DNA from: Caldifarciminota bacterium
GTDB lineage: Bacteria; Hydrothermota; Hydrothermia; UBA1063; CAJXJZ01
Assembly: GCA_026986775.1 (NCBI GenBank)
Contig: JALSNX010000002.1
Coordinates: 1-63,200 of the forward strand
DNA: 63,200 nucleotides
Direction of reading: 5' to 3'
Both the position numbers and the translations under genes were made by a program. The notes under the pieces are model-generated. The model did not search any database. It saw only the letters and a program-made list of their open reading frames with translations, and had not been told where the DNA came from. Of this stretch, positions 6,257 through 62,881 are shown one piece after another. Position 1 is the stretch's first letter; each line of letters starts with the position of its first letter.

Positions 6257-6672
6257 ATACTAATCTCCTTTTTCCACGCAAATATCCACAAGACTGATTT
6301 TTTATAACCCTCTGTGATTTAAAAAGTTATACAAAAACCAAAGAGTTTTCCACAAAAGAAAGTGGAAAACTCCACAAGAAATTGCAACAAAGAGAGTTAA
6401 TATAACTCCCTGTATTGCAAAGAGTTAAAAGATTATTTGTCGCCTGCATGATTAAAATAATAAGGCAAGTATCATATAAGGTCAAATAAGATTTTAAGTT
6501 GTTGACCTGCAATCATTTATATATATGGATTATTCTATGTTTCATGGTAGTTTTACCCATAACTCCTTGTCTTAAAATGGAAACTTGCAAAAAATATAAA
6601 TCTATTATAATTTTGTAATGATTATAAATCTAAACGGTGAGCAATCGGCGGTTTGACTTTATATTATTATAC
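6257..6672. other. Candidate replication origin (oriC) region upstream of dnaA
   Basis: This 416-bp gene-free stretch is strongly AT-rich. DnaA-box-like 9-mers include ATATCCACA (6282-6290), TTATACAAA (6327-6335), TTTTCCACA (6346-6354) and AGTGGAAAA (6361-6369, the complement of TTTTCCACT). CAAAGAG occurs at 6339, 6388 and 6418, twice after ATTGCAA (6381, 6414). GAGTTA-ATA-TAACTC (6394-6408) is a palindrome. AGGTCAA (6479-6485) and TTGACCT (6502-6508) form an inverted repeat in an AT-rich stretch that could unwind. No exact TTATCCACA is present, so the call rests on position and the cluster of near matches. A possible promoter, TTGCAA at 6585-6590 and TATAAT at 6606-6611 with a 15-bp spacer, serves the next gene. 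Confidence 0.6.
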
Positions 6673-43045: not shown

Positions 43046-43669
43046 ATGCGAAAAAGAATACCTGAGGCCACAATAAGAAGGCTCACGCATTATTTGAGGT
43101 GTATAGAGTTTATCAAGGAGACAGGGGCAGAAATACTCCAATCCCGGGACCTTGCTACATTTTGCAGTATAAGCGATTCTCTTGTGAGACGTGACCTTTC
43201 CTATTTCGGAGAGTTTGGCACAAAGGGTGTGGGATATTCCATCAGTGAGCTTGAGAAACACATTAAAAAAATATTGGGGATTGATAGAACCAAGAAGGTA
43301 GGGCTTGCTGGTGTGGGAAACATCGGAAGGGCTCTTTTGAATTTTCCGCTCCTGAAAAACGGGTTTAGCATTGAGGCTGCTTTTGATATAAGAGACGAAC
43401 TTATTGGAAAAAAGATAAATGGAGTGATGGTGTATCATGAAAATGATATGATAAAGGTCTTTAAGGAAAAGCAGCTTGAGATGGGGATTATAGCTGTTCC
43501 CCAGCAGGCAGCTTTGGATGTGGCAAATAAGATGATAGAAGGTGGTGCAAAGGGTCTTTTGAGCTTTGCTTTGATTCAGTGTCCTTTGAAAAAGAAAGTG
43601 CCATTAAGATACATAGAGATAGCTGCTGAACTTGAAATTTTGAGTTATGAGATAGAAAAGGAGGAGTAA
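43046..43669 (+). CDS. rex: Redox-sensing transcriptional repressor Rex
   Basis: The 207-residue protein has a winged-helix domain (EILQSRDLATFCSISDSLVRRDLSYFGEFGTKGVGY) and a Rossmann domain with GVGNIGRALL that senses the NADH/NAD ratio. Rex represses anaerobic and respiratory genes until NADH rises. It heads the Mrp-Mbx operon with a 1-bp gap to mrpE. This placement points to NADH-responsive control of the respiratory complex. Confidence 0.95.
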   Translation: MRKRIPEATIRRLTHYLRCIEFIKETGAEILQSRDLATFCSISDSLVRRDLSYFGEFGTKGVGYSISELEKHIKKILGIDRTKKVGLAGVGNIGRALLNFPLLKNGFSIEAAFDIRDELIGKKINGVMVYHENDMIKVFKEKQLEMGIIAVPQQAALDVANKMIEGGAKGLLSFALIQCPLKKKVPLRYIEIAAELEILSYEIEKEE

Positions 43670-43670
43670 T

Positions 43671-44171
43671 GTGAAGAGCCTGTCCAGATGGCTGTATACT
43701 GCCATTATATTTTTTATAATCTGGATTGCCCTTGTGGGCACAATAAGGTGGGATGAACTTGTCACCGGTGCCGCTGTGTCCATTATTCTTGCGATATTTA
43801 CAGCCCATATCTTTACAACAGAGGGATTATCAAATCTCTCCCCGAAGAAGGTGATATGCGGTATCATTTATTTCTTCCCTTACCTTATCTGGCAGATGAT
43901 AAAGGCAAACCTTGACGTTGCATACAGGGTTATACACCCTAAAAGGCCAATAAACCCAGGGATTGTAAAGGTCAAAACAAAAATGCATAGTGACCTTGCA
44001 AAGACCATTGTTGCCAATTCTATTACTCTTACACCGGGTACTTTTACTCTGGATGTAAGGGGTGATGAGATGTATATTCACTGGATTGATGTGAAATCTC
44101 AGGATGTTGAAGAGGCAAGTGAAATGATACCAGGAGTGTTTGAAAAATGCCTTATGAAATTTATGGATTAA
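43671..44171 (+). CDS. mrpE: Mrp-type cation/proton antiporter subunit E (MbxA-like)
   Basis: The 166-residue membrane protein starts at GTG. It has two to three membrane helices followed by the MnhE signature ANSITLTPGTFTLDV. It is part of the membrane arm that translocates Na+ or H+. It overlaps the F subunit by 25 bp. It is the first of 13 genes in the order of archaeal mbx operons. Confidence 0.92.
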   Translation: MKSLSRWLYTAIIFFIIWIALVGTIRWDELVTGAAVSIILAIFTAHIFTTEGLSNLSPKKVICGIIYFFPYLIWQMIKANLDVAYRVIHPKRPINPGIVKVKTKMHSDLAKTIVANSITLTPGTFTLDVRGDEMYIHWIDVKSQDVEEASEMIPGVFEKCLMKFMD

Positions 44172-44419
44172 CTGTGTATGTGTATGTGGGGCTAATTATG
44201 TTGGGGGTTTTGTTCAGTCTGGTGCGTTTCGTGGCCGGACCATCGGCCCCTGACAGAGTCGTGGCAACGGATATTCTAACCACAATAACCACGGTTGTTC
44301 TTGTTGTTCTTGCTCTGTTTTTCAAGAGGCAAATTTACCTTGATGTGGCTCTTGTATATGCGGTTTTAGCATTTACAGCAGTTGTGGCAATAGCACGGTT
44401 CCTTGAGGGAGGGCTCTAA
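44147..44419 (+). CDS. mrpF: Mrp-type antiporter subunit F (MbxB-like)
   Basis: The 90-residue protein has three membrane helices with the family motif VAGPSAPDRVVATDIL and the conserved aspartate in YLDVALVYAVLAFTAVVAIARFLE. It overlaps mrpE and lies 1 bp before mrpG. Confidence 0.93.
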   Translation: MPYEIYGLTVYVYVGLIMLGVLFSLVRFVAGPSAPDRVVATDILTTITTVVLVVLALFFKRQIYLDVALVYAVLAFTAVVAIARFLEGGL

Positions 44420-44420
44420 A

Positions 44421-44756
44421 ATGATACAAAAAACAATAGGTGAGGTTTTTCTCATTATAGGTGGAATCTTTATGTTTCTTGCGTCACTGGGTCTTTTGAG
44501 AATGCCGGATGTTTATAACAGAATGCAGACATCTACAAAAGCTGTTACTCTTGGTGCAATGTCCAGTATACTTGGAGTTGGTATAATTCACCCTGCATGG
44601 CTTCCAAAATGTATCCTTATTATGCTTTTTATTCTTTTTACAAACCCTGTCTCAGCACACGCAATTGGAAGGGCAGCTTACAGAACCGGAGTTAAACTGT
44701 GGAAAGGTTCTGTGTGTGATAAGTATGGTTCATGCATGGAGGATGAGGATGAATAA
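44421..44756 (+). CDS. mrpG: Mrp-type antiporter subunit G (MbxC-like)
   Basis: The 111-residue protein has three helices with LGLLRMPDVYNRMQTSTKAVTLG and NPVSAHAIGRAAY, typical of MnhG. ATG 44421 follows GAGGGAGGG; an in-frame TTG at 44403 is rejected because it lies before the ribosome site. It overlaps the next gene by 8 bp. Confidence 0.93.
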   Translation: MIQKTIGEVFLIIGGIFMFLASLGLLRMPDVYNRMQTSTKAVTLGAMSSILGVGIIHPAWLPKCILIMLFILFTNPVSAHAIGRAAYRTGVKLWKGSVCDKYGSCMEDEDE

Positions 44757-45003
44757 TCTGATTTTGTTTATGGGTTTTGGTCTGTCGCTGGTCCTTGTGG
44801 TTGCCACATTCGTTGTGTGGCTATCAAAGGACCTACTTGTGGCTATTTTAGGTTCAGCTGTGGTGAGTCTTGTGGCGTCAATCTTCTTTCTCATATTACA
44901 GGCACCTGACGTAGCAATTACAGAGGCCGCAATAGGAGCAGGGCTTACAACAGGTATTCTCCTTTATGCCATGAAAAAAGCCGGGAGGTATGAGGATGAT
45001 TAG
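44749..45003 (+). CDS. MbxD-like subunit (DUF4040, MrpA C-terminal-like)
   Basis: The 84-residue membrane protein contains LQAPDVAITEAAIGAGLTTG, the mark of the MbhD/DUF4040 part of MrpA. In Mbh and Mbx complexes this piece is a separate subunit of the ion-translocating arm. ATG 44749 is used, with GGAGG 6 bp upstream; the frame is open further back inside mrpG but without a ribosome site. Confidence 0.88.
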   Translation: MNNLILFMGFGLSLVLVVATFVVWLSKDLLVAILGSAVVSLVASIFFLILQAPDVAITEAAIGAGLTTGILLYAMKKAGRYEDD

Positions 45004-45679
45004 GAAAATTATTGCATTCTTAGTTGTATTTTACTTTGGCTATATCCTTTATTCATTTATCGCTGTTAACTTTCCCTTTGGAGAAAGACCACTTAAGGGA
45101 GTTGCTGCCCATTATGTGGACAAAGGTATAGAAGAAGAGGGAGCTACGAACATTGTAACTTCAATTGTTACTCTTTACAGAGGTTTTGATACGCTGGGAG
45201 AGGTAACGGTCCTGTTCCTTGCTGCCACAGGGCTTGGCCTCTTATTGGCAGGAATGAAAGAGGAGGAGAAGGAAAAACCTGAGCCAACTCTGATAATGGA
45301 GACCACAACCAGATACCTTTTTCCACTTGTACTTTTATTCGGTACTTACATATTCATACACGGGCATCTCACACCCGGTGGAGGATTTCCTGCCGGTGTT
45401 GTCATAGCCACAGGATACTTCATGATGTTTATAGCACAGAAACAGTTTAAGCCATCTGAATATCTTCTGTCTGCCACAGAGAGTTTCGCCGGAACGCTTT
45501 ATGTCATAATGGGACTTCTGGGACTTGCACTTGCCTTTTCTTTTCTTGCAAACGTTATGCCTCTTGGCGTTCCCAATACAGTATTCAGTGCGGGAATAAT
45601 ACCTGTAATTTACATAATAATAGGCTTCAAGGTTGGCAGTGAAATGACTGGAATCCTTGCTCATCTTAAGGAGGCGTAA
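44996..45679 (+). CDS. mrpB: Fused MbxE/MrpB-type antiporter subunit (MbxF-like)
   Basis: The 227-residue protein joins an MbhE-like N-terminus (NIVTSIVTLYRGFDTLGEVTVLF, about 1-90) to an MnhB domain (about 100-227, LFGTYIFIHGHLTPGGGFPAGV). In Thermococcales Mbh these are two proteins; in Mbx they are fused, which supports the Mbx assignment. ATG 44996 is preferred with GGGAGG 7 bp upstream; ATG 44990 is too close to it. Confidence 0.88.
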   Translation: MIRKIIAFLVVFYFGYILYSFIAVNFPFGERPLKGVAAHYVDKGIEEEGATNIVTSIVTLYRGFDTLGEVTVLFLAATGLGLLLAGMKEEEKEKPEPTLIMETTTRYLFPLVLLFGTYIFIHGHLTPGGGFPAGVVIATGYFMMFIAQKQFKPSEYLLSATESFAGTLYVIMGLLGLALAFSFLANVMPLGVPNTVFSAGIIPVIYIIIGFKVGSEMTGILAHLKEA

Positions 45680-45680
45680 T

Positions 45681-46034
45681 ATGAATGGAGGACTTTTATT
45701 TTACGGTAGCTCTGTGTTTTTAATGGTAATGGGGATTTTTATTGCCATAACTGGCAAACACCTTATAAAGATACTGCTTGGTATTGACCTTTTTGATGTT
45801 GGTCTCAATCTGCTCATTATTTCCTTTGGATATGTAAATGGCGGTACAGCACCTATTTTCTCAAAGTATCCTCACATATTTAAAAACGTGGTTGACCCTG
45901 TTCCTCAGGCTCTTGTTCTTACTGCCATAGTAATTGGGGTTGCTGAAATGGCCATGGGACTTGCAATAGTCATGAAGATAAAAGAAAAATTTGGAACATG
46001 TAATATTGCCAAACTAAAGGAGTTAAAATGGTAA
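45681..46034 (+). CDS. mrpC: Mrp-type antiporter subunit C, NuoK-like (MbxG-like)
   Basis: The 117-residue protein has three helices and the NuoK/MnhC pattern with conserved glutamate in VLTAIVIGVAEMAMGLAIV, plus DPVPQALVLTA. ATG 45681 follows AAGGAGG by 6 bp. It overlaps the next gene by 7 bp. Confidence 0.93.
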   Translation: MNGGLLFYGSSVFLMVMGIFIAITGKHLIKILLGIDLFDVGLNLLIISFGYVNGGTAPIFSKYPHIFKNVVDPVPQALVLTAIVIGVAEMAMGLAIVMKIKEKFGTCNIAKLKELKW

Positions 46035-47488
46035 GCCCGATTCTTGTAATTGCACTTTCTCTGTTTTTTGCTTTTGTTATTCCTTTGCTGGGAATGGTTT
46101 CTAAAAAGCTTCCCCGCCTTGTTCCTCCACTGGCTATGCTTGTGAATCTGTGGATTTTGATTACAAATATAAAGTTTGTGTCGCGGGGGGCTATGCTTGT
46201 TACAACAGCAGGACTTAAACCTCCTATAGCCATTAACCTTGCTATAGACCGGTTCAGTCTGCTTTTTGTTATCCTCATACAGTTAATTGGGCTTTTACTT
46301 TCGGTTTACTATCTCTCTCAGGATAACAGGGACCAGCGGTTCTACATGTTGTTTTTACTCAATATCCTTGGTGCATCTGGTATTGTAATGACGGGCGATA
46401 TTTTCAATTCCTTTGTATTTCTTGAAATACTTGAGATTTCTTCCTTTGGTCTTGTGGCTTCTAAAAAGGATAGGAAGGCTCTTGAGGGTGGATTCAAATA
46501 CATGGTGATAGGTGCTATAGGTTCTTCACTGTATCTTCTGGGCATTATAGTTCTCTATCTTACAACCGGGTCTTTGAACATGGCTGAAATAGCAAAACTC
46601 ATGCCCCATATACCCGAGAGTATAAAACTCTTTGCTGCCTTGCTTCTTCTTGCTGGAATTGGTGTGGAGGTAGAACTCTTTCCTCTCAATGCATGGGCAC
46701 CGGATGCATACCATGGTGCAAAAGATGAGATAAGCACGCAGCTTTCCTCAATCATATCAAAGGCAGGTATATATCTTGCTGCGAGAATATTCTTTACAAT
46801 ATTCAATGGATTTTATGCTCTCAAGATAATTTTCTACCTTGGTGTAATCACCTTTGTGATAGCTGAGCTTGCAGCCCTGATGCAAAAGAACGTAAAAAGA
46901 ATGCTTGCTTACTCCTCCATTGGACAGATGGGCCTTTTAATGCTCATTTTATCTTTAGTGGCAAAAAGAGGTGATGTGTTTGTCATAACAACAGTTATTC
47001 TCCTTGCACTCAATCACGCCTTTGGAAAAGGACTTTTATTCCTTTCTCTCGGAGCTTTGAGTGGTGGGAACGGTGAATACGAGATTGAAAATCTTGGTGG
47101 AAACGGCAGAGCAAATCCCCTTGCGGGATTTCTCTTTACTGTGGGTGCGCTGTCAATTGTCGGTATGCCCTTTTTCTTCGGTTTCTGGTCCAAAATTTCA
47201 GCCCTTATATCTCTTATGAAAACAAACGTAATATACCTTATTGCACTTGTTCTTGTAATTTCTCTTGTTGAGATCTATTACTACGGCAATGTGATTGTTA
47301 ATCTTTTTAGAGGGGAAGGTAAAAAGTATGGTATCAGCATTGTCCCGGCCGCTGTTATGATTTTATTCGCTCTTTTCGTGATAGTTTTTGGTATATGGCC
47401 ACATCCCGTATTCCAGATTGCGCAGAGTGCTGCTGTGTCATTGATTGAGAGAACAACCTATATTTCTTCAATTATAGGAGGTATGTGA
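46028..47488 (+). CDS. mrpD: Proton-translocating antiporter-like subunit (MrpD/MbxH, NuoN/M family)
   Basis: The 486-residue protein has about 14 helices. Conserved channel residues are seen in FVFLEILEISSFGLVASKK (Glu of TM5), ELFPLNAWAPDAYHGA and the lysine/histidine motifs KRMLAYSSIGQMG and NHAFGKGLLF. It is one of two large antiporter-like subunits in this operon. AAAGGAG precedes the ATG. Confidence 0.93.
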   Translation: MVSPILVIALSLFFAFVIPLLGMVSKKLPRLVPPLAMLVNLWILITNIKFVSRGAMLVTTAGLKPPIAINLAIDRFSLLFVILIQLIGLLLSVYYLSQDNRDQRFYMLFLLNILGASGIVMTGDIFNSFVFLEILEISSFGLVASKKDRKALEGGFKYMVIGAIGSSLYLLGIIVLYLTTGSLNMAEIAKLMPHIPESIKLFAALLLLAGIGVEVELFPLNAWAPDAYHGAKDEISTQLSSIISKAGIYLAARIFFTIFNGFYALKIIFYLGVITFVIAELAALMQKNVKRMLAYSSIGQMGLLMLILSLVAKRGDVFVITTVILLALNHAFGKGLLFLSLGALSGGNGEYEIENLGGNGRANPLAGFLFTVGALSIVGMPFFFGFWSKISALISLMKTNVIYLIALVLVISLVEIYYYGNVIVNLFRGEGKKYGISIVPAAVMILFALFVIVFGIWPHPVFQIAQSAAVSLIERTTYISSIIGGM

Positions 47489-49293
47489 TGGCAATGTTTT
47501 ACCTTCTTCTTTTGCTTGTTTTGGTGGGTATTGTTTCATTTGTTCTGGGCCCGATTAAAGTTCTCAGAAACATCATAGCCTTTTTAGGTGCAGTGACAGC
47601 ATTTTTCTATTTTCTTACGAATATAAAACCCGGGCTCATATACTCCCTCAATATACGTGTCTATAACGTCCATTTTGAGGCTGGATTTTCAAGTATGTTT
47701 TTCGGTGTTATCATCACTGCTCTTTTCATTATCTTTCTCATTGCATCCTTTCATGAGGAAAATGATGGAGCGTATTACCTGTTTGCATACCTTACACTCA
47801 CAGGGGCACTGGCTGTTCTTTTTGCAAAGGACCTTATTTCATTCTTCTTCTTCTTTGAAACTATGAGTCTCTTCTCATTCCTCATGGTTCTTAAGGGTAA
47901 AAGTGATACCTCTTTTCGCTCTGCATTCAAATACCTTGTGTGGTCGGTTTTTGGAGGGTATGCCTTCCTGATGGGAACGTTTTTGAAGGTATATTACACT
48001 CACTCAGTTATGATTGGGGACATTTCATACCTTGCAGGTGGAGTGAAACTTCTTATTCTCATACTTCTTCTTGCGCCATTTGCAGTTAAGGCGGCGCTTA
48101 TGCCGTTTCATCTGTGGGCACCGGATGCGTATAAGGATTCTAAGGATACATTCACAGTCTTTTTCTCTGGAGGATTATCCAAGATAGGTGTCTTTGGATA
48201 TTTCCTTGTTCTCTTTAAAGTTTTTACTGAAATTGCAGTTAAATATCCGTATTTTCTGAAAGCCTTTGCGTGGCTTGGTGCAATAACAGCCGCACTTTCG
48301 GGCATATACGCATTTATGCAGGATGATGCGAAAAAGTTACTGGCATACTCCAGTATAAGCCAGCTGGGGTATGTGGCGGTTGGTTTTGGTATTTATACCC
48401 ATTTTAGTGTGGTTGCTGCACTTTTCCATGCTCTCGGTCATGCTGTATTTGAATCCCTCCTTTTCCTTGTGGTTGCAGGTGTTTACTACAGAACAAAGAC
48501 TACAGACTTAAGGAAAATGGGGGGACTCATAAAGAGAATGCCACTTTCGTTTATTGGCCTTCTCTTTGGAATTATAGCCACCTCAGGAATACCTCCAACA
48601 ATAGGATTTCCCTCAAAATGGTTACTCTATGAAGCCCTCATTTTAAAGGGTGATTTATTGCTTACGAGTCTGGTTTTCTTTGCCTCAATTACTGCCTTTC
48701 TCTACTCATACAAACTTGTTCATGGAATATTCCTTGGAAAACTCCACGAGGAACACAAAAACGTAAAGGAAGCACCTCTCGGTTATGCTTTTGGAACCGT
48801 TGTTCTTCTTGTGCCTTTACTTGTTCTTGGAATTATACCGGGCCTTGTGATAAAGCCCATTGATTATATTGTAAGGTTCTATCTCAAGCCCGAACTGGGC
48901 TACAATCTTGCCAATATGAATACCCCTCTTGGACATGTGAACTTTCCTGTAGTTGGACTTGTTATGGGGCTTACATTTGCCCTTTCTCTCTTCATATACT
49001 TAATAGCTGGAAAATCTTACAGAGCGGAACAGACAGATAACTACACGGCAACAGAAGCAATAGATGAAGATTTTGAGCTTCATTATGCAGGTGAGTTCTA
49101 TGGATTTATGAAAAAGGCCTTTGGCAGGCCACTTACGTGGAGTTTTGAAAAGATACTGAATGCATTTTTGAAACTGTTCTCTTTCCTTGGTGAAGTTGCA
49201 AGAGGATTCTATATGGGAGATGCAAGGGTCTATCTATTCTATGTTATAGCGTTCTTTGCTCTTTTAGCATATCTTATGGGAGGTAAATTATGA
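47488..49293 (+). CDS. Second antiporter-like subunit (MbxH'-like, NuoL/MrpD family)
   Basis: The 601-residue protein has about 14-16 helices and the channel motifs DLISFFFFFETMSLFSFLMVLK, AALMPFHLWAPDAYKDSKD, KKLLAYSSISQLGYV and FHALGHAVFESLLFLV. The long C-terminus resembles the lateral-helix region of NuoL. The presence of two such subunits (H and H') is a feature of Mbx/Mbs, whereas Mbh has one. ATG 47488 follows AGGAGG by 5 bp; a GTG at 47485 is an alternative. Confidence 0.9.
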   Translation: MAMFYLLLLLVLVGIVSFVLGPIKVLRNIIAFLGAVTAFFYFLTNIKPGLIYSLNIRVYNVHFEAGFSSMFFGVIITALFIIFLIASFHEENDGAYYLFAYLTLTGALAVLFAKDLISFFFFFETMSLFSFLMVLKGKSDTSFRSAFKYLVWSVFGGYAFLMGTFLKVYYTHSVMIGDISYLAGGVKLLILILLLAPFAVKAALMPFHLWAPDAYKDSKDTFTVFFSGGLSKIGVFGYFLVLFKVFTEIAVKYPYFLKAFAWLGAITAALSGIYAFMQDDAKKLLAYSSISQLGYVAVGFGIYTHFSVVAALFHALGHAVFESLLFLVVAGVYYRTKTTDLRKMGGLIKRMPLSFIGLLFGIIATSGIPPTIGFPSKWLLYEALILKGDLLLTSLVFFASITAFLYSYKLVHGIFLGKLHEEHKNVKEAPLGYAFGTVVLLVPLLVLGIIPGLVIKPIDYIVRFYLKPELGYNLANMNTPLGHVNFPVVGLVMGLTFALSLFIYLIAGKSYRAEQTDNYTATEAIDEDFELHYAGEFYGFMKKAFGRPLTWSFEKILNAFLKLFSFLGEVARGFYMGDARVYLFYVIAFFALLAYLMGGKL

Positions 49294-50177
49294 GTATTCT
49301 CTACTTTTTTCTGTACCTTCTCCTTGTTACAATAATCGGGCTTTTGTACATGGGGGCTGCAAGGAAAATAACAGCCCATATACAGAATAGATATGGGCCT
49401 CCGGTTTATCAGCCTATACTGGATGTTTTAAAACTTTTTGCTAAAAAGGATACTGCTTCTCACGGAATTATGCACTCTCTTGGTCCGGTTATTGCATATA
49501 CAGGAATTGCCGCCACATTGCTATTTCTACCACTTGGAAATCATACTCCACTACTCCACTTCAACGGTGATCTGTTTGTTGTGCTCTATCTTCTTGTTGT
49601 GGGACCTCTGGGAATGGCTCTTGGTGCAGGGGAATCTGCAAATTCCAATGCCACAATCGGAATAGCGAGGGCCCTTTCAATGATGCTGGGCTACGAAATA
49701 ATCTTCTTCATGGCCACCCTTCCTGTATTTTACCACTATGGTACTGCCTCAATCTACAGGGTTATACAGGCTCAGGGCGCTTTTCCAGACTGGGCGGCCA
49801 TTCTATTTCCCATATCATTTATTGCAGGACTCTTTGCTCTGCAGGGTCTTATGGGAGAAAAACCATTTGAACTTGTAGTTGCCCCTCATGAGATTGCATC
49901 AGGTCCCATGGTGGAATACGGTGGAAAATACCTTGGACTTCTTCAGATATGGCACGCTGTGGGAATAATTGTTGAAACAGGTCTCTTCGTTGATATATTC
50001 TTCGGCCCTCAGAGTATTCTGTGGTTTTTTGCAGGAACTTTTATTGTATTCTTTGCCACTGTGATTGTTAATGCAGTTATGCCCAGATTTAGAATAGAGC
50101 AGGCTGTAAGATTCTACTGGGGGCTACCCCTTTTGCTTTCAATCTTAGGAATATTGCAGGTTTATATCTGGAGGTAG
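49290..50177 (+). CDS. mbxM: NuoH/HycD-like membrane anchor subunit (MbxM-like)
   Basis: The 295-residue membrane protein has about eight helices and family motifs RKITAHIQNRYGPPVYQPILDVLKL and EKPFELVVAPHEIASGPMVEYGGKY (quinone-chamber-like loop). It links the ion-pumping arm to the iron-sulfur peripheral arm. The ATG overlaps the previous stop by 4 bp. Confidence 0.92.
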   Translation: MSILYFFLYLLLVTIIGLLYMGAARKITAHIQNRYGPPVYQPILDVLKLFAKKDTASHGIMHSLGPVIAYTGIAATLLFLPLGNHTPLLHFNGDLFVVLYLLVVGPLGMALGAGESANSNATIGIARALSMMLGYEIIFFMATLPVFYHYGTASIYRVIQAQGAFPDWAAILFPISFIAGLFALQGLMGEKPFELVVAPHEIASGPMVEYGGKYLGLLQIWHAVGIIVETGLFVDIFFGPQSILWFFAGTFIVFFATVIVNAVMPRFRIEQAVRFYWGLPLLLSILGILQVYIWR

Positions 50178-50180
50178 AAG

Positions 50181-50690
50181 ATGAAACTGTTTAAATTTGC
50201 ACAATCCCGGTCTTTGTGGATGATGCACTTCTGTACGGGGTGTGGGGCTGTTGAACTCCCCCCAACCATGACCTCCCGTTTTGATATGGAGAGATTTGGA
50301 ATAATACCTATGGCAACACCGAGACAATCCGATTTATTGCTTATAACTGGATATCTCACAGTTAAGACCCTGAAGAGGGTTGTGAGGGCTTATGAGCAGA
50401 TGCCCACGCCCAGATACGTAATAGGCTTTGGCTCATGCACCATAAACGGAGGGATGTATTGGGACTCTTACAATGTGATAAAGAAACTTGAACTTTACAT
50501 ACCAGTTGACCTTTACATAAACGGTTGCATGCCAAGACCAGAGGCCATTATTGATGCTTTCTTGAAGTTAAGAGAGATGATAGATAAAGGCGAGGCCAAC
50601 GCATGGAAAAAGTATATAGAAAACTACGAGTGGTATAAAAAGAACCAGGCAGAAGTATTTGATGTAGAAAAATGGAGTTTAAAGAAATGA
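50181..50690 (+). CDS. mbxJ: NuoB/MbxJ-like small subunit carrying the proximal [4Fe-4S] cluster
   Basis: The 169-residue protein has the cluster ligands Cys18 and Cys21 (FCTGCGAVE), Cys86 (GSCTINGG) and Cys116 (NGCMPRPEA). It passes electrons from the N-subunit clusters to the active site in the L subunit. The L/J pairing is shared by complex I, group 4 hydrogenases and Mbx. Confidence 0.94.
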   Translation: MKLFKFAQSRSLWMMHFCTGCGAVELPPTMTSRFDMERFGIIPMATPRQSDLLLITGYLTVKTLKRVVRAYEQMPTPRYVIGFGSCTINGGMYWDSYNVIKKLELYIPVDLYINGCMPRPEAIIDAFLKLREMIDKGEANAWKKYIENYEWYKKNQAEVFDVEKWSLKK

Positions 50691-51223
50691 CAGTTGAAGA
50701 GACCATTAAAAAAGACATTGAAACAACTTTTGGGGAGCTTGTGAGGGTGGAAATAGAGCGGAAGCACAGAGTGAGGGCATATACACCCAGAAACATGGTC
50801 CTTCCCATGCTTGCCTATCTTAAACAGCGCGGATTTCACCAGTTTACACTTCTTACCTGCGTTGACTGGATAAAAGATGGGAAATTTGAACTCGTGTACA
50901 ACCTTTACTCCCTGAATTACAATGTGCATGTGTTGATAAGTACAAAGATAAATCGGGATAAAGCGACAATGCCGACTGCTATAAATGTTTATGAAATGGC
51001 TTTTGATTATGAGAGAGAGATTCATGAGATGTTTGGTGTGGAGTTTGAAGGACATCCAAGACTTGATGAGTTTCTTCTTGAAGACTGGAAAGGGATACCT
51101 CCCATGAGAAAGGACTTTGATACAAGAAAATACGTGGAGGAGAAATACGGAATGAAAGACCTAACAAAGGAACTTTTCACAAGAAAAGAACAACCATACA
51201 GGGGGCCAGGTTCAAATGGGTAA
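50687..51223 (+). CDS. mbxK: NuoC/MbxK-like subunit
   Basis: The 178-residue protein has the NuoC 30-kDa motif YEREIHEMFGVEFEGHPRLDEFLLEDW and the PPMRKDF segment. It packs against the L subunit. ATG 50687 overlaps the mbxJ stop as ATGA and has GGAG 9 bp upstream; ATG 50672 is a possible alternative. It overlaps mbxL by 8 bp. Confidence 0.92.
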   Translation: MTVEETIKKDIETTFGELVRVEIERKHRVRAYTPRNMVLPMLAYLKQRGFHQFTLLTCVDWIKDGKFELVYNLYSLNYNVHVLISTKINRDKATMPTAINVYEMAFDYEREIHEMFGVEFEGHPRLDEFLLEDWKGIPPMRKDFDTRKYVEEKYGMKDLTKELFTRKEQPYRGPGSNG

Positions 51224-52331
51224 AATAAGAGAGTTTGACTTTGAATACTTTATAGGACCTGCACATCCCGGTGTTACCGGGAACATGTCATACCACATAT
51301 GGGCAGAGGGTGATACAATACTGAAGATTGAACCCAATTTAGGATACCTTCACAGAGGCTTTGAAAAATTAGTTGAGCAAAGACACTGGATAAAAAACTT
51401 TCCACTTATTTTGAGAATATGTGTGCCAGAGCCAGATGTAAATGAAGTCCTTCTCGCAATGGCTGTGGAGGAATTAAACGAGATTGATGTGCCAGAAAGA
51501 GCCCAGTATATAAGAATAATAGTCCTGGAACTTGCAAGGCTTGCTGCGTACCTCTTTTACTTTGGTGGAGTGGCTGGTGCAATTGGACTTTATACCATTC
51601 CGCAGTGGACAATAGGGGACAGAGACTATATCCTTGACCTCTTTGAGGAACTCACGGGAGGAAGGGTTTATCACATATACCAGACCATAGGTGGAGTGAG
51701 AAGGGATACGCCAGAAGGGTTTGAGGAGAGGGTTTTAAAGGTCTTAGATTATCTTGAGGAACGTCTTAAAGACTACGATAAACTGTTCTTTGAGCACCCT
51801 CTTTTCTTAAAGAGAACAAAGGGTATTGGCATTGTTGATAAGGATACGGCCCTCAGATTCAGCGTTACAGGTCCGAATCTCAGGGCAGCAGGTGTAAATT
51901 ATGACGTAAGAAAACAGGAGCCCTATCTCATCTATGATAGATTTGACTTTGATGTGCCGGATATTTACAGAGATGGTGATGTATATTCAAGGGCAATGCA
52001 GAGAAGACTTGAATTCGCAGAATCCATAAGGATTATAAGACAGGCAATAGATAAGATGCCGGGGGGGGCTGTGAACATAAAAATCCGCAATCCATTTGAG
52101 TACAGGGTCAGGGCAGGTTCAACATATGTTAAACTTGAATCTTCCAAAGGCGAATACGGGTTTTATGTGGTCTCTGATGGTGGGGTCCTTCCTTACAGGC
52201 TCCATGTGAGGGGACCGAGCTTTTCTCACGGACTCCAGCTCGTAAGACACATTGCAGAAGGCACAAACATAGCTGACATATCAATGATTTTATTCAGTCT
52301 GGACGTATGTCCACCTGATGCAGAAAGGTAG
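51216..52331 (+). CDS. mbxL: NuoD/MbxL-like large subunit with only two of four NiFe-type cysteines
   Basis: The 371-residue protein is related to NiFe hydrogenase large subunits and NuoD (GPAHPGVTGNMSYHIWAEGD at the start). The N-terminal CxxC appears as RICVPEP (Cys69 kept, Glu72 at the second position) and the C-terminal CxxC as DVCPPDAER (Cys365 kept, Asp368). A normal NiFe site needs four cysteines, so hydrogenase activity is unlikely. Loss of two cysteines is what I recall for archaeal MBX/MBS, the sulfane reductase. A G8 run at 52061-52068 lies in the coding region. No hydrogenase maturation genes are present. Confidence 0.92.
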   Translation: MGKIREFDFEYFIGPAHPGVTGNMSYHIWAEGDTILKIEPNLGYLHRGFEKLVEQRHWIKNFPLILRICVPEPDVNEVLLAMAVEELNEIDVPERAQYIRIIVLELARLAAYLFYFGGVAGAIGLYTIPQWTIGDRDYILDLFEELTGGRVYHIYQTIGGVRRDTPEGFEERVLKVLDYLEERLKDYDKLFFEHPLFLKRTKGIGIVDKDTALRFSVTGPNLRAAGVNYDVRKQEPYLIYDRFDFDVPDIYRDGDVYSRAMQRRLEFAESIRIIRQAIDKMPGGAVNIKIRNPFEYRVRAGSTYVKLESSKGEYGFYVVSDGGVLPYRLHVRGPSFSHGLQLVRHIAEGTNIADISMILFSLDVCPPDAER

Positions 52332-52338
52332 GTGTGTT

Positions 52339-54111
52339 ATGGGAATGAATCTTAAGTTTTTTGACGCTCTAAAGTTTCTTGTAAGAAAACCTCATACAGT
52401 GCGGGTTCCATATGAAAAGAAGGAACCTGCAAAAAGGTACAGGGGGATTCATGTAAACGACTGGGAAAAGTGTATAGGATGTGGAAACTGCGCAAAAATA
52501 TGTACCTGCCAGGCCATTGAGATGGTAGAGATACCAACACTCACTCCTAAAATGGGAGCCACAAACTTAAGGCCACAGGTTGACTATGGACGCTGTTCAT
52601 TCTGCGGGCAGTGTGTTGATGTATGTCCAACAGGTTCTTTGAAACTTTCAACAGAATATGAGATTATATCTTCGGACATAAATGATTTTAAGTTCATTCC
52701 GAACCTCAATCGTGATTCAGGTCCAGGAACCGGCTGGGAGTCTGATATAGAAAGTTCCCTTCTTGACTTTAAGCGGGTTGAAATGCCAGAGAGGGACCCA
52801 AAAGAGAGGAAGAAGGACTTTGACTGGGTTCTTAAAGGTTTCTCTGAGGAAGAGGCTGTATTTGAGGCTGTAAGATGTCTTGGATGTGCACTCTGTGTGC
52901 AGGGCTGTCCAACTGGCATGTACATCCCTGAGTACATTAATGCCATATTCAATAAGGACTATGAAAAATCTGTTGAGTGGATGTTCATAAACAATCCTTT
53001 ACCAGAGGTGTGTGGAACCATCTGTACTCACAGGTGTGAGGATGCATGTGTATATCACAACAGAGGCCAGGCAGTGCAGATAAGATACTTAAAGGGATTT
53101 GCAGCAGGTAAGGTTGATGATTACGAAAAAGTTGTTGGTATATCAAAGAAGAAAGCAGATAAGAAGGTTGCACTCATTGGTGCAGGTCCCGCGAGTTTAT
53201 CATGTGCATTTTATCTCAGGAGAGAAGGGGTTGATGCAGTCATATATGAGGCGCAGAAGGTTGCAGGTGGAATGCTTAAACTGGGTATTCCGAGGTACAG
53301 ATTGCCTGATTCAATTCTGAGTAAAGAAATTGACTTTATAAAGAAACAGGGCGTGGAGATTAAATTTGGTATAAGAGTTGGTGTGGATGTTACTTTTGAG
53401 CAGTTGCTCAAAATGTATGATGCAGTATTTATTGGCACAGGTTACCATGTGGGAAGCAGAATGGGTATTCCCGGAGATGAAGGGGAAGGTGTATTTGATG
53501 CCGCGACGCTCTTAAGAGACGTCAATTTAGGCAAAGAGGTAAAAATAGGAAAGAAAGTTCTGGTTATTGGTGGTGGAGATGTGGCAATGGATGCAACAAG
53601 GACAGCGCTCAGGCTCGGTGCAGAAGAGGTTATTCTCTCTTACAGAAGAAGATACGTTGACATGCCTGCATCAGACGAGGAAAAACACGAGGCAGAGGCA
53701 GAGGGTGTTAAGTTTATGACGCAGACCCTACCTGTGGAGATTGTGAGAGACAAAAACGGTAGGATTACAAAGGTGAAGTATGTGGAAACGGAGATGGTGC
53801 ATGAAGAGGGAGCAAGAAGGCCGAAACCCGTGCCCAAAATGGACAATGTGATGGAATGGGAGATTGATACAGTTATCATGGCCATTGGACAGAAGCCAGA
53901 CTGGAGTTTCCTGCCCGATGAGTGGAAGAATAAAATAAAATTTGACAGGAGAATGAATCACATAATAGTGAACGATGATATGATGACAGATGTAGAGGGA
54001 GTATTCGCTGGCGGTGACATTGTAAATCCACGTGCTGATGCCATAAGTGCAATAGCAGATGGCAGAAAAGCAGCACTTGGAATTATCAAGTACTTAGAAA
54101 TCAGAAAGTAA
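52339..54111 (+). CDS. MbxN (NuoI-like ferredoxin) fused to a GltD/NfnB-type NAD(P)H flavoprotein
   Basis: The 590-residue protein has two parts. Residues 1-110 are the NuoI/MbxN-like subunit with two [4Fe-4S] motifs (Cys45, 48, 51, 55 and Cys86, 89, 92, 96). From about 165 it is a complete GltD/NfnB-like module: cysteine-rich domain (Cys180-190 and Cys225-237), FAD site LIGAGPASLS and NAD(P)H site VIGGGDVAMD. In known Mbx operons N is a small separate protein. The fusion suggests that NAD(P)H or NAD(P)+ exchanges electrons directly with the complex. ATG 52339 lies 8 bp after mbxL. Confidence 0.9.
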   Translation: MGMNLKFFDALKFLVRKPHTVRVPYEKKEPAKRYRGIHVNDWEKCIGCGNCAKICTCQAIEMVEIPTLTPKMGATNLRPQVDYGRCSFCGQCVDVCPTGSLKLSTEYEIISSDINDFKFIPNLNRDSGPGTGWESDIESSLLDFKRVEMPERDPKERKKDFDWVLKGFSEEEAVFEAVRCLGCALCVQGCPTGMYIPEYINAIFNKDYEKSVEWMFINNPLPEVCGTICTHRCEDACVYHNRGQAVQIRYLKGFAAGKVDDYEKVVGISKKKADKKVALIGAGPASLSCAFYLRREGVDAVIYEAQKVAGGMLKLGIPRYRLPDSILSKEIDFIKKQGVEIKFGIRVGVDVTFEQLLKMYDAVFIGTGYHVGSRMGIPGDEGEGVFDAATLLRDVNLGKEVKIGKKVLVIGGGDVAMDATRTALRLGAEEVILSYRRRYVDMPASDEEKHEAEAEGVKFMTQTLPVEIVRDKNGRITKVKYVETEMVHEEGARRPKPVPKMDNVMEWEIDTVIMAIGQKPDWSFLPDEWKNKIKFDRRMNHIIVNDDMMTDVEGVFAGGDIVNPRADAISAIADGRKAALGIIKYLEIRK

Positions 54112-54187: not shown

Positions 54188-54511
54188 ATGAAAAAGTACG
54201 TAAAAGACCTGGAGGACCCAAGGAAGTACATATTCTCAGCACTTTCATGTGGAAGGAGAATAAGGATAATAGAAATCCTGAAGGAGGGCGAGAAAAAGGC
54301 ATCGGATATTATTCCAGAACTGGGTATAGACCAGTCGGCAGTTTCCAGACATCTCTCCATACTCAAAGGTGCCGGTATTATAGCATCAAGAAAAGAAGGA
54401 GTAAATGTCATTTACAGAATAGCGGACCCGGATATTTTCAAATTACTGGAAATAGCCACAGAAATTGTGAGGAGAAAGGAAAAACAGGTTCTGAGAAAGC
54501 TGGGCAAATAA
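54188..54511 (+). CDS. ArsR-family transcriptional regulator
   Basis: The 107-residue winged-helix protein has RRIRIIEILKEGEKKASDIIPELGIDQSAVSRHLSILKGAGIIASRKEGVNVIYRI, typical of ArsR. It has one cysteine (SALSCGRR) and no CxxC pair, so metal or thiol sensing is uncertain. In Thermococcales a distant ArsR-type protein, SurR, switches between Mbh and Mbx in response to sulfur; the position here invites comparison but orthology is not shown. AGGAG precedes the ATG. Confidence 0.88.
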   Translation: MKKYVKDLEDPRKYIFSALSCGRRIRIIEILKEGEKKASDIIPELGIDQSAVSRHLSILKGAGIIASRKEGVNVIYRIADPDIFKLLEIATEIVRRKEKQVLRKLGK

Positions 54512-54571
54512 TCCTCACATATTACAGCTTTGGAATAACTCCTTTATTTAAAACCAACGGGAGCGTGTTTA

Positions 54572-56846
<2,275 letters not shown>

Positions 56847-59617: not shown

Positions 59618-62600
59618 ATGAAAATACTCTTTTTCTTTATACTTTCATGGAATGGAGATGCATGGCGGGCCATGTCCAGGTCCGAGATTTTGAGTAAAGC
59701 CAACCAGATGATAGATGGAGCATGGACTCCCCAGCACAATCAAAGAGGATGGACGAGTTCCCGCTCACCTTACCATTTCTATGCAGGCAGAACATACCAT
59801 GGAGTGCTTTACTCACAGAATAACCCTGTGGAGGACTGGGACGAATTCAGGTCAAGAATAAGGACTGCAAGAGCCTATTATGGTTACTGGAGTGGTGGAA
59901 GGTGGTATAACAAACTTGGCAATGACTGTTCTGGTTTTGTAAGTATTGCATGGGGGATGCCTGGAAGATACACTACAGTCGGTTTTTACAATCAAGCGAA
60001 CAAGAAAAAACAATATGTCATCGCCATTGGCCGTGCAGGTCAGGCAGCTCATGTGGATTTAAAGCCCGGTGATGCACTTAATTACTCTGGTCATCACATT
60101 ATACTAATCAACAGACGGGTAACAAATGGGGTTCAATCCCTTGAGCAAACCCCCAACAATGCCAAGAGAAGAAGATGGTATTACTCAAGTCTCTCCCGTT
60201 ATCAGCCCATTAGAAGAAAAGACCTTACAGATGCACCGCAGGATACCATAAAAACAGAAGTGGAATTTGAACATTATCCCACACAGGTGCGTCCTGAAGA
60301 ATCATTCAGTGTTCTTGTTAAAGCTACAGTGAAAAATTCAGATGCGCCCGCAGACCTCTTTCTTGAGGTGAAAGATAAAGAAACAGGAAGAATACTGTGG
60401 AGCCGTAAGATAGAAAATATTTCCAGTGGTTCCCACGATGAACAGTTCTCCGGTATTTCCCTTCCAGACAGGGGAGAGAATTATTACGTTTACTTTATGG
60501 CAACACTTACTCCTGATGGCGGTTCCTGGAGCAATAGATACGATTATGCTACCACATATTACCACCCCACTTTAGTGGGAGAAACCTCAGGTGGTGACGG
60601 CGGAGATGGTGGAGATGGAGGAAGTGGTGGTAATGGAGGTGGAGCTGATGGACACGGCTCAGACATTCCAGATCCGGGTTCAAGTTTTGCTGATGCTTAT
60701 ACTATAGGTCCCGGCACATATACACAGTATCTTGATAGCGTGGATGTGTATGATTATTATAAATTCATGGTGCATGAGGGAGAGTCCATAACCATAACCG
60801 TGATTCCACCTGAAAATGCAGATTTTGACATAGGACTTTATGACCCATCGTATGTTGGCCGGGCAAATGGAGTTGAAGGAGAAGGACATTTTGAAAAAAT
60901 AGGATATATAATAGATACCACAGGATACTGGTATCTTCAGGTGTTAAGACACAGTGGAGAAGGGAACTACACACTGATTCTGGAAATAGACACAATAAAG
61001 CCAGCATGGACAGTTATGGTATACCTTAACGCTGACAATGAGCTTGGAAGTGCTGATGCAGTTATAAATTCTATGGAGGCTGCGAAACCCTCACCTCATG
61101 TTAATGTGCTTGTGGAATATGACCTCAGAAATGGTGGAACGAAAATATATAAAATCAAGGGAGACAGCGATCCGTCAAAGATAAATTCACCCGTGGTTAG
61201 AGAACTTGGTGAGAGGAATATGGGTGATGCTTCTACCCTTGTTGACTTTGTTGACTGGGCTCACAGGGAATACGATGCAGGAAAATATGCCTTAATAATT
61301 AAGAGTACAGGTGGCGGATGGTCATGGATATCAAATGACCTTTCTTCAGGAGATTCCATAGAAATACCCACGGGAGAGTTAAAATCAGCATTATCCCGCA
61401 TAAAAGGGATACTCGGAAAGAAGTTAGAAGTGCTTACCTTTGATGCTTCTCTTACGGGTATGTGGGAGGTGATGGATCAGGTTAAGGATTATGCCAATTA
61501 CTTTGTGTCCTCTGAAGAGAATATACCTTCATTGGGCATAAATTATGGCAGTTTTATCAATGTTCAGCCAGCTACAGATGGAGCCGGACTTGCCGGGGCA
61601 ATTGTTTCATCAGCCCAGGATGCACCAGTTTTAAGTGCAGTAAATCTTTCAAAAATAGAGAATCTTACGGAGAAAATAAATCTATTTGCCAGACTCTTAT
61701 TCTCCTACAAAAACACTTACGGAGATATAATTGACACCATAAGAGGGTATTTTAATGGCAATAGCGAAAATCACGAATATGGTTATGACCCAAGGTTAAA
61801 CAATCATGATTTTATTGACCTATACAGGTTCTCCTATTTTGTATCTTCCTCGTCTCTTCCTTCAGATGTAAGAGATGCTGCCCGTGATGTCATGAATGCC
61901 ATATCAGAGGCCGTAATTTCAATGCATGCAGGCTCAGGATACAGTAACGATTCACACGGAATATCCATTTACTATCCGAAAGACCCGGAAGATTATAACC
62001 ATACACCTTTTGGAGGAAATTATGATGACCTTATAACCTCAAGAAACACCCAGTGGGATGAATTCATAAAACAGAAGGGAGAAGGTGACGGTTCAGATTA
62101 TACCCTCACAACGACAACCTTTAACTGGATAAATACCTCCACGCCGACAGGTATTAATGGAGATGACCAGTCAAAAGAGATTTCTCTGCCATTCACATTT
62201 ACGTTTTATGGGAAAGAGTATAGAAGTGTGTATGTGTGCAGCAACGGATTTTTGAGTTTCACCTCAAGTTCAACCCCCTACAATCCACAGGCCATTCCAG
62301 AACCAGCAGACCCCAATGCGGTAGTTGCCCCGCTCTGGAGAGATTTAGATGCAGGAAAAGCGGGTAACATTACATACTATGCAGGAGCAGATAAATTTGT
62401 TGTTACCTATGATGGAGTAAGTAATCGTAAAAATGATTCCAGACAGACATTTCAGGTAATCCTTTATCCAGATGGAGAGATAGTATTCCAGTACAGGGAT
62501 GTAACCAATGACCAGACCACAACCATAGGTCTAGAAAATGAAGACGGCACAAAAGGTAAAACAGCAGGCTTTCCTTCAAACGGAACAGCTTACAGATGGA

Positions 62601-62881
62601 TTCCCACATCAAAATCCACAAAATCCATCAAAGGAAGTATTTTGTATATTTCAGGTGTAACGCTCAGTAAAACCGCAGGCAGGATTGAATTTTCAACAGT
62701 TCCATCACAGATGGTAAAGGTGGTAATCTATAATGCGCTTGGGCAGAAGCTATATGACAATACTCTGATGCCAGAGAGAGTGGTTAATTTCAGTCATGCG
62801 CCAATATCACGGGGAATATATTTTGTGGAGATACACGCTGGTGCATTGAAGGAGCAAAAGAAAATAATGATACTTGAATAA
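59618..62881 (+). CDS. Large secreted protein: NlpC/P60-like domain, PPC domain, inactive clostripain-like domain, sorting domain
   Basis: The 1087-residue protein has a very short signal (MKILFFFILSW), then an NlpC/P60-like cysteine peptidase region (Cys104 in NDCSGF, His159/160 in YSGHHIILI). A Ig-like segment (about 210-320) is followed by a Gly/Asp-rich linker (about 327-345). A PPC domain (about 350-465) precedes a clostripain/C11-like domain (about 466-825, starting WTVMVYLNADNELGSADAV). Here the expected His reads Thr564 (KSTGGGW) and the expected Cys reads Ser611 (DASLTGM), so it is probably inactive. A further beta domain (about 830-1000) and a Por-type sorting domain (YNALGQKLYDN, PISRGIYFVEIH) close the protein. 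Confidence 0.85.
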   Translation: MKILFFFILSWNGDAWRAMSRSEILSKANQMIDGAWTPQHNQRGWTSSRSPYHFYAGRTYHGVLYSQNNPVEDWDEFRSRIRTARAYYGYWSGGRWYNKLGNDCSGFVSIAWGMPGRYTTVGFYNQANKKKQYVIAIGRAGQAAHVDLKPGDALNYSGHHIILINRRVTNGVQSLEQTPNNAKRRRWYYSSLSRYQPIRRKDLTDAPQDTIKTEVEFEHYPTQVRPEESFSVLVKATVKNSDAPADLFLEVKDKETGRILWSRKIENISSGSHDEQFSGISLPDRGENYYVYFMATLTPDGGSWSNRYDYATTYYHPTLVGETSGGDGGDGGDGGSGGNGGGADGHGSDIPDPGSSFADAYTIGPGTYTQYLDSVDVYDYYKFMVHEGESITITVIPPENADFDIGLYDPSYVGRANGVEGEGHFEKIGYIIDTTGYWYLQVLRHSGEGNYTLILEIDTIKPAWTVMVYLNADNELGSADAVINSMEAAKPSPHVNVLVEYDLRNGGTKIYKIKGDSDPSKINSPVVRELGERNMGDASTLVDFVDWAHREYDAGKYALIIKSTGGGWSWISNDLSSGDSIEIPTGELKSALSRIKGILGKKLEVLTFDASLTGMWEVMDQVKDYANYFVSSEENIPSLGINYGSFINVQPATDGAGLAGAIVSSAQDAPVLSAVNLSKIENLTEKINLFARLLFSYKNTYGDIIDTIRGYFNGNSENHEYGYDPRLNNHDFIDLYRFSYFVSSSSLPSDVRDAARDVMNAISEAVISMHAGSGYSNDSHGISIYYPKDPEDYNHTPFGGNYDDLITSRNTQWDEFIKQKGEGDGSDYTLTTTTFNWINTSTPTGINGDDQSKEISLPFTFTFYGKEYRSVYVCSNGFLSFTSSSTPYNPQAIPEPADPNAVVAPLWRDLDAGKAGNITYYAGADKFVVTYDGVSNRKNDSRQTFQVILYPDGEIVFQYRDVTNDQTTTIGLENEDGTKGKTAGFPSNGTAYRWIPTSKSTKSIKGSILYISGVTLSKTAGRIEFSTVPSQMVKVVIYNALGQKLYDNTLMPERVVNFSHAPISRGIYFVEIHAGALKEQKKIMILE

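What the first reader, a model, noticed from the sequence alone, without database searches (positions are those of the whole stretch)
52339..54111. MbxN subunit fused to a complete NAD(P)H-binding flavoprotein
One frame carries two NuoI-type clusters, then the full GltD/NfnB cysteine-rich, FAD and NAD(P)H domains, 16 cluster-type cysteines in all. This puts an NAD(P)H port directly on the ion-pumping complex. It could act as ferredoxin:NAD(P) or NAD(P)H:sulfane oxidoreductase, perhaps with bifurcation, and so play an Rnf-like part.
Basis: partly seen in the sequence, partly recalled or inferred. Interest (0 to 1): 0.82.

Follow-up and report, generated by a model that had tools for sequence, protein, structure and literature searches.

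The report
Sulfur-respiration complex with NADPH inlet
In a candidate-phylum bacterium, the electron-entry subunit of an ion-pumping sulfur-respiration complex is fused to an NAD(P)H-oxidising flavoprotein; the same fusion recurs in many bacterial phyla, including the lab species Thermotoga maritima, so the complex is probably fed by NAD(P)H rather than by ferredoxin alone, as models assume.

Summary
The fusion is real. One 590-codon frame (52339-54111) joins a NuoI/MbsN domain to a complete NfnB/GltD-fold FAD-NAD(P)H module. It is the 13th and last gene of an operon in the same order as the P. furiosus mbx/mbs operon. All 16 cluster cysteines are invariant in 31 fusions. Every MBX operon in the phylum with readable downstream DNA ends in it (23 of 23 genomes), as do 15 of 15 in Gammaproteobacteria. 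Thermotoga maritima carries a full-length relative above the curated cut-off of the unnamed family NF010590. An assembly or frame error is excluded. Best explanation: an NADPH-fed version of the sulfane reductase MBS, with electrons running NADPH -> FAD -> four [4Fe-4S] -> the MbsJ-type proximal cluster -> polysulfide, and ion pumping. The J and L active-site signatures are those of MBS, and both menaquinone routes are missing. Bifurcation at this flavin is unlikely: the Nfn cluster ligand Glu is an invariant Lys, as in StnC, whose FAD is non-bifurcating, and there is no NfnA domain. An Rnf-like role is not needed, because RnfC and RnfD genes lie elsewhere in the genome. New points: two nucleotide-binding classes; one Clostridiales MAG with both a fused and an unfused MBX. 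Activity is untested.

The parts
52339..54111 (+). Fusion: MbxN/NuoI-like 2x[4Fe-4S] domain (res. 1-~130) + NfnB/GltD-fold module (res. ~140-590: two [4Fe-4S], FAD, NADPH Rossmann domains)
52471..52629 (+). NuoI/MbsN-type double [4Fe-4S] motif, Cys 45/48/51/55 and 86/89/92/96
   Evidence: all invariant in 31 fusions
52876..53052 (+). Fer4_20 domain cysteines 180/183/186/190 and 225/229/233/237
53092..53094 (+). Lys252 codon: position of the NfnB Glu ligand and of StnC Lys170; invariant in the family
   Evidence: PMC10482914
53551..53697 (+). Second Rossmann domain, NADPH-type motif GGGDVAMDATRTALRL..YRRRYVDMPAS
   Evidence: 2'-phosphate Arg reading is inference
43671..44171 (+). MrpE-like (MbxA)
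44147..44419 (+). MrpF-like (MbxB)
   Evidence: identified by order and homologous loci
44403..44756 (+). MrpG-like (MbxC)
44665..45003 (+). MbxD-like small subunit (start uncertain)
44990..45679 (+). MrpB-like (MbxF)
45657..46034 (+). MrpC-like (MbxG)
46028..47488 (+). MrpD/antiporter-like pump (MbxH)
47485..49293 (+). Second antiporter-like pump (MbxH'); best solved structure 6u8y_X, a chain of the MBS entry aligned over its full length (taken as MbsH')
49290..50177 (+). NuoH-like membrane anchor (MbxM)
50181..50690 (+). NuoB-like MbxJ with MBS-type CTGCG motif
50672..51223 (+). NuoC-like (MbxK)
51216..52331 (+). NuoD-like MbxL keeping the two MbsL cysteines, lacking complex I Tyr87
43046..43669 (+). 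Rex-family redox repressor directly upstream of the operon (likely regulator)
   Evidence: same position in L023, L025, L026, L033
54572..55414 (+). NfnA-like subunit (PRK06222) of a separate nfnAB pair; adjacent, not part of the fusion
55386..56846 (+). NfnB-like subunit (TIGR01316 over cut-off) of the separate nfnAB pair

Best explanation
The fusion is the electron-input subunit of a 13-subunit MBX/MBS complex that takes electrons from NADPH. Inferred path: NADPH hydride to FAD (C-terminal module); one electron at a time through the FAD-proximal Lys/Cys-ligated cluster and its neighbour (Cys 180-237 domain); through the two NuoI-type clusters (Cys 45-96); to the site-differentiated proximal [4Fe-4S] of the J subunit, where polysulfide/sulfane sulfur is cleaved; the energy drives H+ pumping through H and H' and the Mrp-type Na+/H+ module. 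Shown here: the fusion, its conservation, operon order, active-site signatures, nucleotide-domain fold, absence of menaquinone genes. Inferred: cofactor occupancy, direction, substrate, stoichiometry. The flavin is a plain two-electron/one-electron transformer, not a bifurcating site.
For: (1) 13-gene order with the fusion last, identical across WOR-3, Bacteroidales, Clostridia, Tenericutes, Gammaproteobacteria and Gallionellaceae, as in the 13-subunit MBS/MBX (PMC7684303, PMC9431562; the gene order itself is own knowledge). (2) L, J, H' and the N domain all hit the MBS structure 6u8y best among these complexes. (3) J keeps C25/C28/C93/C123 at MBS spacing (gapless alignment) and L keeps C85/C385; complex I Tyr87 is Val in 44 of 44 L rows other than the Nqo4 outgroup, MbsL included. 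(4) All 16 Cys and the FAD-domain motifs conserved; model matches NfnI large subunit, Z 47.6, 1.7 A over 436 residues. (5) Invariant Lys252 aligns with StnC K170; StnC passes NADPH electrons from a non-bifurcating FAD into a cluster chain (PMC10482914). (6) L and fusion co-vary across 48 loci (Mantel r 0.854, p 0.0002). (7) No PF02621 and no MenD in 8 WOR-3 genomes, so quinone is an unlikely acceptor. (8) The only Complex1_51K hit in the genome is RnfC, so no NuoF-type NADH module competes for this complex. (9) A Clostridiales MAG carries both a fused and an unfused 13-gene MBX, as expected if the module is a swappable input.
Against: No biochemistry. The literature held assigns ferredoxin as donor to MBX of T. 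maritima (PMC9431562) and of strain 3DAC (PMC10356935); ferredoxin may still dock on the N domain. The driving force NADPH -> polysulfide is small (about 0.1 V, own estimate), leaving little for two pumps. No sulfur-metabolism genes were looked for in this genome.
Confidence: 0.6

Rival explanations
1. Rnf-like: reduced ferredoxin enters at the NuoI-type clusters and the flavin module reduces NAD(P)+, with ion pumping.
For: MBX was once proposed to be a ferredoxin:NADP+ oxidoreductase (repeated in PMC6349859); Rex next to the operon fits an NAD(H)-linked role.
Against: RnfC and RnfD genes lie elsewhere in the same genome; the conserved J/L sulfane-site signatures would have no purpose; electrons would bypass the cavity that couples redox to pumping in this superfamily.
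Confidence: 0.12
2. Electron bi-/confurcation: NAD(P)H and ferredoxin act together at the FAD, as in NfnAB.
For: NfnB fold, Z 47.6; the genus has nfnAB directly downstream.
Against: No NfnA domain in the fusion; Glu ligand replaced by invariant Lys252, as in StnC where FAD is non-bifurcating (PMC10482914); the neighbouring nfnA has its own nfnB, and the pair was seen next to the fusion only in loci of this genus.
Confidence: 0.12
3. Reverse mode: ion-motive force drives sulfide (or another donor at the J/L site) to NAD(P)+, supplying reductant.
For: The small driving force makes the reaction reversible; fused MBX also occurs in Thiomargarita, Thiohalobacter and Gallionellaceae bins, lineages with lithotrophs that need reverse electron flow (own knowledge).
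Against: WOR-3 physiology was not examined; those proteobacteria mostly carry the other nucleotide class.
Confidence: 0.12
4. Assembly or frame error joining mbxN to a neighbouring nfnB-like gene.
For: An nfnB gene lies 1.3 kb downstream.
Against: Same-frame fusion in more than 50 independent loci across phyla and an above-cut-off hit in T. maritima.
Confidence: 0.01

Closest known systems
Membrane-bound sulfane reductase MBS (MBX) of Pyrococcus furiosus, PDB 6u8y
   Same: 13 genes in the same order; L, J, H' and N domain best matches; J proximal-cluster motif; two L cysteines; no complex I Tyr87
   Different: MbsN is a plain subunit fed by ferredoxin; here it is fused to an NAD(P)H flavoprotein
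NF010590 / PRK13984 'putative oxidoreductase', including a protein of Thermotoga maritima
   Same: Same end-to-end architecture
   Different: Window clade scores 617 of the 946 bits required; the family has no assigned function
StnC GltD-like domain (Sporomusa Stn) and NfnABC
   Same: NADPH-FAD fold with Lys at the FAD-proximal cluster; feeds a cluster chain
   Different: Soluble bifurcating complex; fused to NuoG-type, not NuoI-type, clusters
NfnB (NfnAB large subunit)
   Same: Fold, two [4Fe-4S], FAD, NADPH
   Different: Glu cluster ligand and NfnA partner absent here
Dihydropyrimidine dehydrogenase
   Same: NADPH -> FAD -> two clusters -> 2x[4Fe-4S] domain in one chain (own knowledge; fold match)
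   Different: Soluble; pyrimidine substrate at FMN
Respiratory complex I
   Same: Same pump and Q-module ancestry; a nucleotide port on the peripheral arm
   Different: NuoEFG port with FMN and a quinone site, unrelated to the port here

Membership tests
MBS/MBX | 13-gene order A-B-C-D-F-G-H-H'-M-J-K-L-N | tested here: met
   (P. furiosus order from own knowledge)
MBS/MBX | L and J closer to MbsL/MbsJ than to complex I or MBH | tested here: met
   L 372 bits vs 260 (Nqo4) vs 146 (MbhL); J 250 vs 141
MBS/MBX | J proximal-cluster motif at MBS spacing; L keeps C85 and C385 | tested here: met
   PMC7684303
MBS/MBX | Complex I quinone residues His38 and Tyr87 absent in L | tested here: met
   Thr and Val in the window
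MBS/MBX | N is a stand-alone two-cluster subunit | tested here: not met
   fused; a variation in the input subunit, not in the catalytic site that defines MBS
MBS/MBX | Polysulfide reduction and ion pumping | not testable with these tools
   needs biochemistry
Nfn (bifurcating) | NfnB fold with FAD and NADPH domains | tested here: met
Nfn (bifurcating) | Glu ligand of the FAD-proximal cluster | tested here: not met
   invariant Lys252
Nfn (bifurcating) | NfnA partner domain in the same protein | tested here: not met
   separate nfnAB nearby
Rnf | RnfA-E subunits in the operon | tested here: not met
   operon holds none; RnfC and RnfD genes lie elsewhere in the genome
Complex I | NuoEFG NADH module | tested here: not met
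   only Complex1_51K hit in G000 is RnfC
NF010590 (PRK13984) | Score above curated cut-off 946 | tested here: not met
   617 bits; T. maritima control is above it

The most novel reading that the evidence does not exclude
A respiratory complex of the complex I superfamily that acquired a nucleotide port independently of NuoEFG, with two nucleotide-binding classes (NADPH-type and apparently NADH-type), exchanging electrons between NAD(P)H and sulfane sulfur in either direction, including ion-driven NAD(P)+ reduction from sulfide in sulfur-oxidising lineages.
Probability: 0.25. Interest if true: 0.75.

Novelty: new variant of a known kind. Interest (0 to 1): 0.52.

Why it matters
Current models draw bacterial MBX as a ferredoxin-only sulfur reductase (PMC9431562, PMC10356935). 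If the fused module works, NAD(P)H is a direct donor (or product), which changes ATP-yield calculations for Thermotoga-like fermenters. It would also show a second way of fitting a nucleotide port to the ancestral ion-pumping core, besides NuoEFG of complex I. T. maritima is culturable, so the question is directly testable.

Tried and rejected
Reading the fusion as a frame or assembly artefact was rejected. Quinone as acceptor was judged unlikely. A single clade holding all fused L subunits is rejected by the AU test (p 2e-5), so the port was lost or gained more than once; a basal position of P. furiosus MbsL is not rejected (p 0.40), and a FastTree placement of it among WOR-3 rows did not survive a better model. 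Neighbouring genes outside the operon gave no consistent partner. Papers: no statement on the fusion was found in the open-access library; older reviews of MBX and Wu et al. 2018 are not held, so the fusion may already be described there. The position of the T. maritima homologue within its mbx operon could not be read. 'of' with locus ids is not accepted; genome handles worked.

Full report
Observation. The window belongs to a candidate division WOR-3 genome (Caldifarciminota in NCBI taxonomy). Bases 52339-54111 (+) encode one 590-residue protein. Pfam finds two 4Fe-4S ferredoxin stretches, the Fer4_20 domain and a Pyr_redox_2 domain. NCBIfam NF010590 (PRK13984, 'putative oxidoreductase') covers nearly the whole length, at 617 bits against a cut-off of 946. 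So the architecture is already catalogued, without a function, and this clade is a divergent branch of it. In the 14 control genomes only Thermotoga maritima rings at E <= 1e-150, and above the cut-off.

Not an artefact. Full-length fusions occur in 12 related genomes of the class. In the phylum, 28 genomes carry an MBX-type L gene; in 23 the DNA continues downstream, and all 23 show the fusion in one frame, while the other five run off the contig. Across public genomes the same protein is found in Bacteroidales, Clostridia, Tenericutes, Thiomargarita, Thiohalobacter, Gallionellaceae and others at 35-44% identity. In Gammaproteobacteria 15 of 15 readable MBX operons end in it, and in Bacillota 4 of 5.

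Operon. Wherever enough DNA is present the order is MrpE-F-G-B-B-C-D-H'-NuoH-B-C-D-fusion, that is the 13-gene mbx/mbs order of P. furiosus (own knowledge). The best solved relatives of L, J, H' and the N domain are all chains of P. furiosus MBS, 6u8y. In MBS the proximal cluster has three Cys ligands from MbsJ (C28, C93, C123), MbsL keeps C85 and C385, and the quinone residues His38/Tyr87 of complex I are missing (PMC7684303). The window proteins meet all of these. Both known menaquinone routes (PF02621 and MenD) are absent from eight WOR-3 genomes. Sulfane sulfur is therefore the best guess for the acceptor.

The added module. The AlphaFold model (pLDDT 84.8, pTM 0.84) matches the NfnI large subunit at Z 47.6, 1.7 A over 436 residues, then GltD, NfnABC, StnC and dihydropyrimidine dehydrogenase. 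All 16 cluster cysteines are invariant in 31 fusions. At the position of NfnB's Glu ligand the family has an invariant Lys252, which aligns with StnC Lys170. In StnC that Lys sits at the FAD-proximal cluster, the FAD is non-bifurcating and NADPH electrons go one by one into a cluster chain (PMC10482914). There is no NfnA-type domain. I therefore read the module as a plain NAD(P)H inlet. The distance matrices of L and of the fusion correlate over 48 loci (r 0.854), so module and complex have mostly evolved together.

Rnf-like role. The genome has RnfC and RnfD genes at G000:C30 (recognised from their translations), and RnfC is its only Complex1_51K hit. A second ferredoxin:NAD(P) pump is not excluded but is not called for, and it would leave the conserved J/L site unexplained.

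New points. First, the second Rossmann domain comes in two classes: YRRRxxDMPA (window clade and some others; NADPH-like by analogy with NfnB/GltD) and a class with a longer loop and an acidic residue (..ALExxxxxPADxEE; most proteobacterial, Firmicutes, Tenericutes and Bacteroidales members and some WOR-3), which I infer may prefer NADH. Second, Clostridiales MAG G151 carries two 13-gene MBX operons, one fused and one with a plain 162-aa MbxN and no flavoprotein gene next to it; binning error in a MAG cannot be excluded. Third, a tree of L rejects all fused forms as one clade (p 2e-5), so the port was lost or gained more than once.

Energetics (inference). With NADPH at about -370 mV and ferredoxin at -500 mV (PMC6405883) and polysulfide near -260 mV (own knowledge), NADPH gives about 0.1 V. 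That is enough for roughly one ion per two electrons, and it makes the reaction easily reversible.

Verdict. Observation confirmed; NAD(P)H port supported; bifurcation and Rnf-like role not supported; function untested. A new variant of the known MBS/MBX kind, widespread and present in a model organism, and apparently overlooked in the mechanistic literature that I could read.

Noticed in passing
L116:4014-13414 and L045/L095 (Clostridiales MAG G151): One MAG holds both a fused and an unfused 13-gene MBX operon, a natural control for what the flavin module adds.
   Followed up: partly
L037, L040, L047, L048, L051, L052 (Clostridia, Bacillota, Tenericutes): The J subunit has CTGCC, a complex-I-like tandem Cys, and L has GMHGN with the His38 position filled, so the proximal cluster or acceptor may differ from MBS in this branch.
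   Followed up: no
fusions listed: Two nucleotide-binding classes (YRRR..MPA versus ..ALE..PADxEE) within the same operon type, suggesting NADPH and NADH versions.
   Followed up: partly
window 43046-43669: Rex-family redox repressor directly upstream of the MBX operon, also in L023, L025, L026 and L033.
   Followed up: partly
window 54188-56846: ArsR-type regulator plus complete nfnAB directly after the fusion; among the WOR-3 loci with downstream DNA, seen only in those of this genus.
   Followed up: partly
window 6637-8310: Another GltD-like flavoprotein (PRK12771-like, 557 aa), unrelated to the MBX operon.
   Followed up: no
L035: The Bacteroidales L subunit has lost both MbsL-type cysteines, though its J keeps the MBS motif.
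   Followed up: no
window 59618-62881: Large secreted-looking protein whose middle resembles a clostripain-type peptidase by eye; not tested.
   Followed up: no
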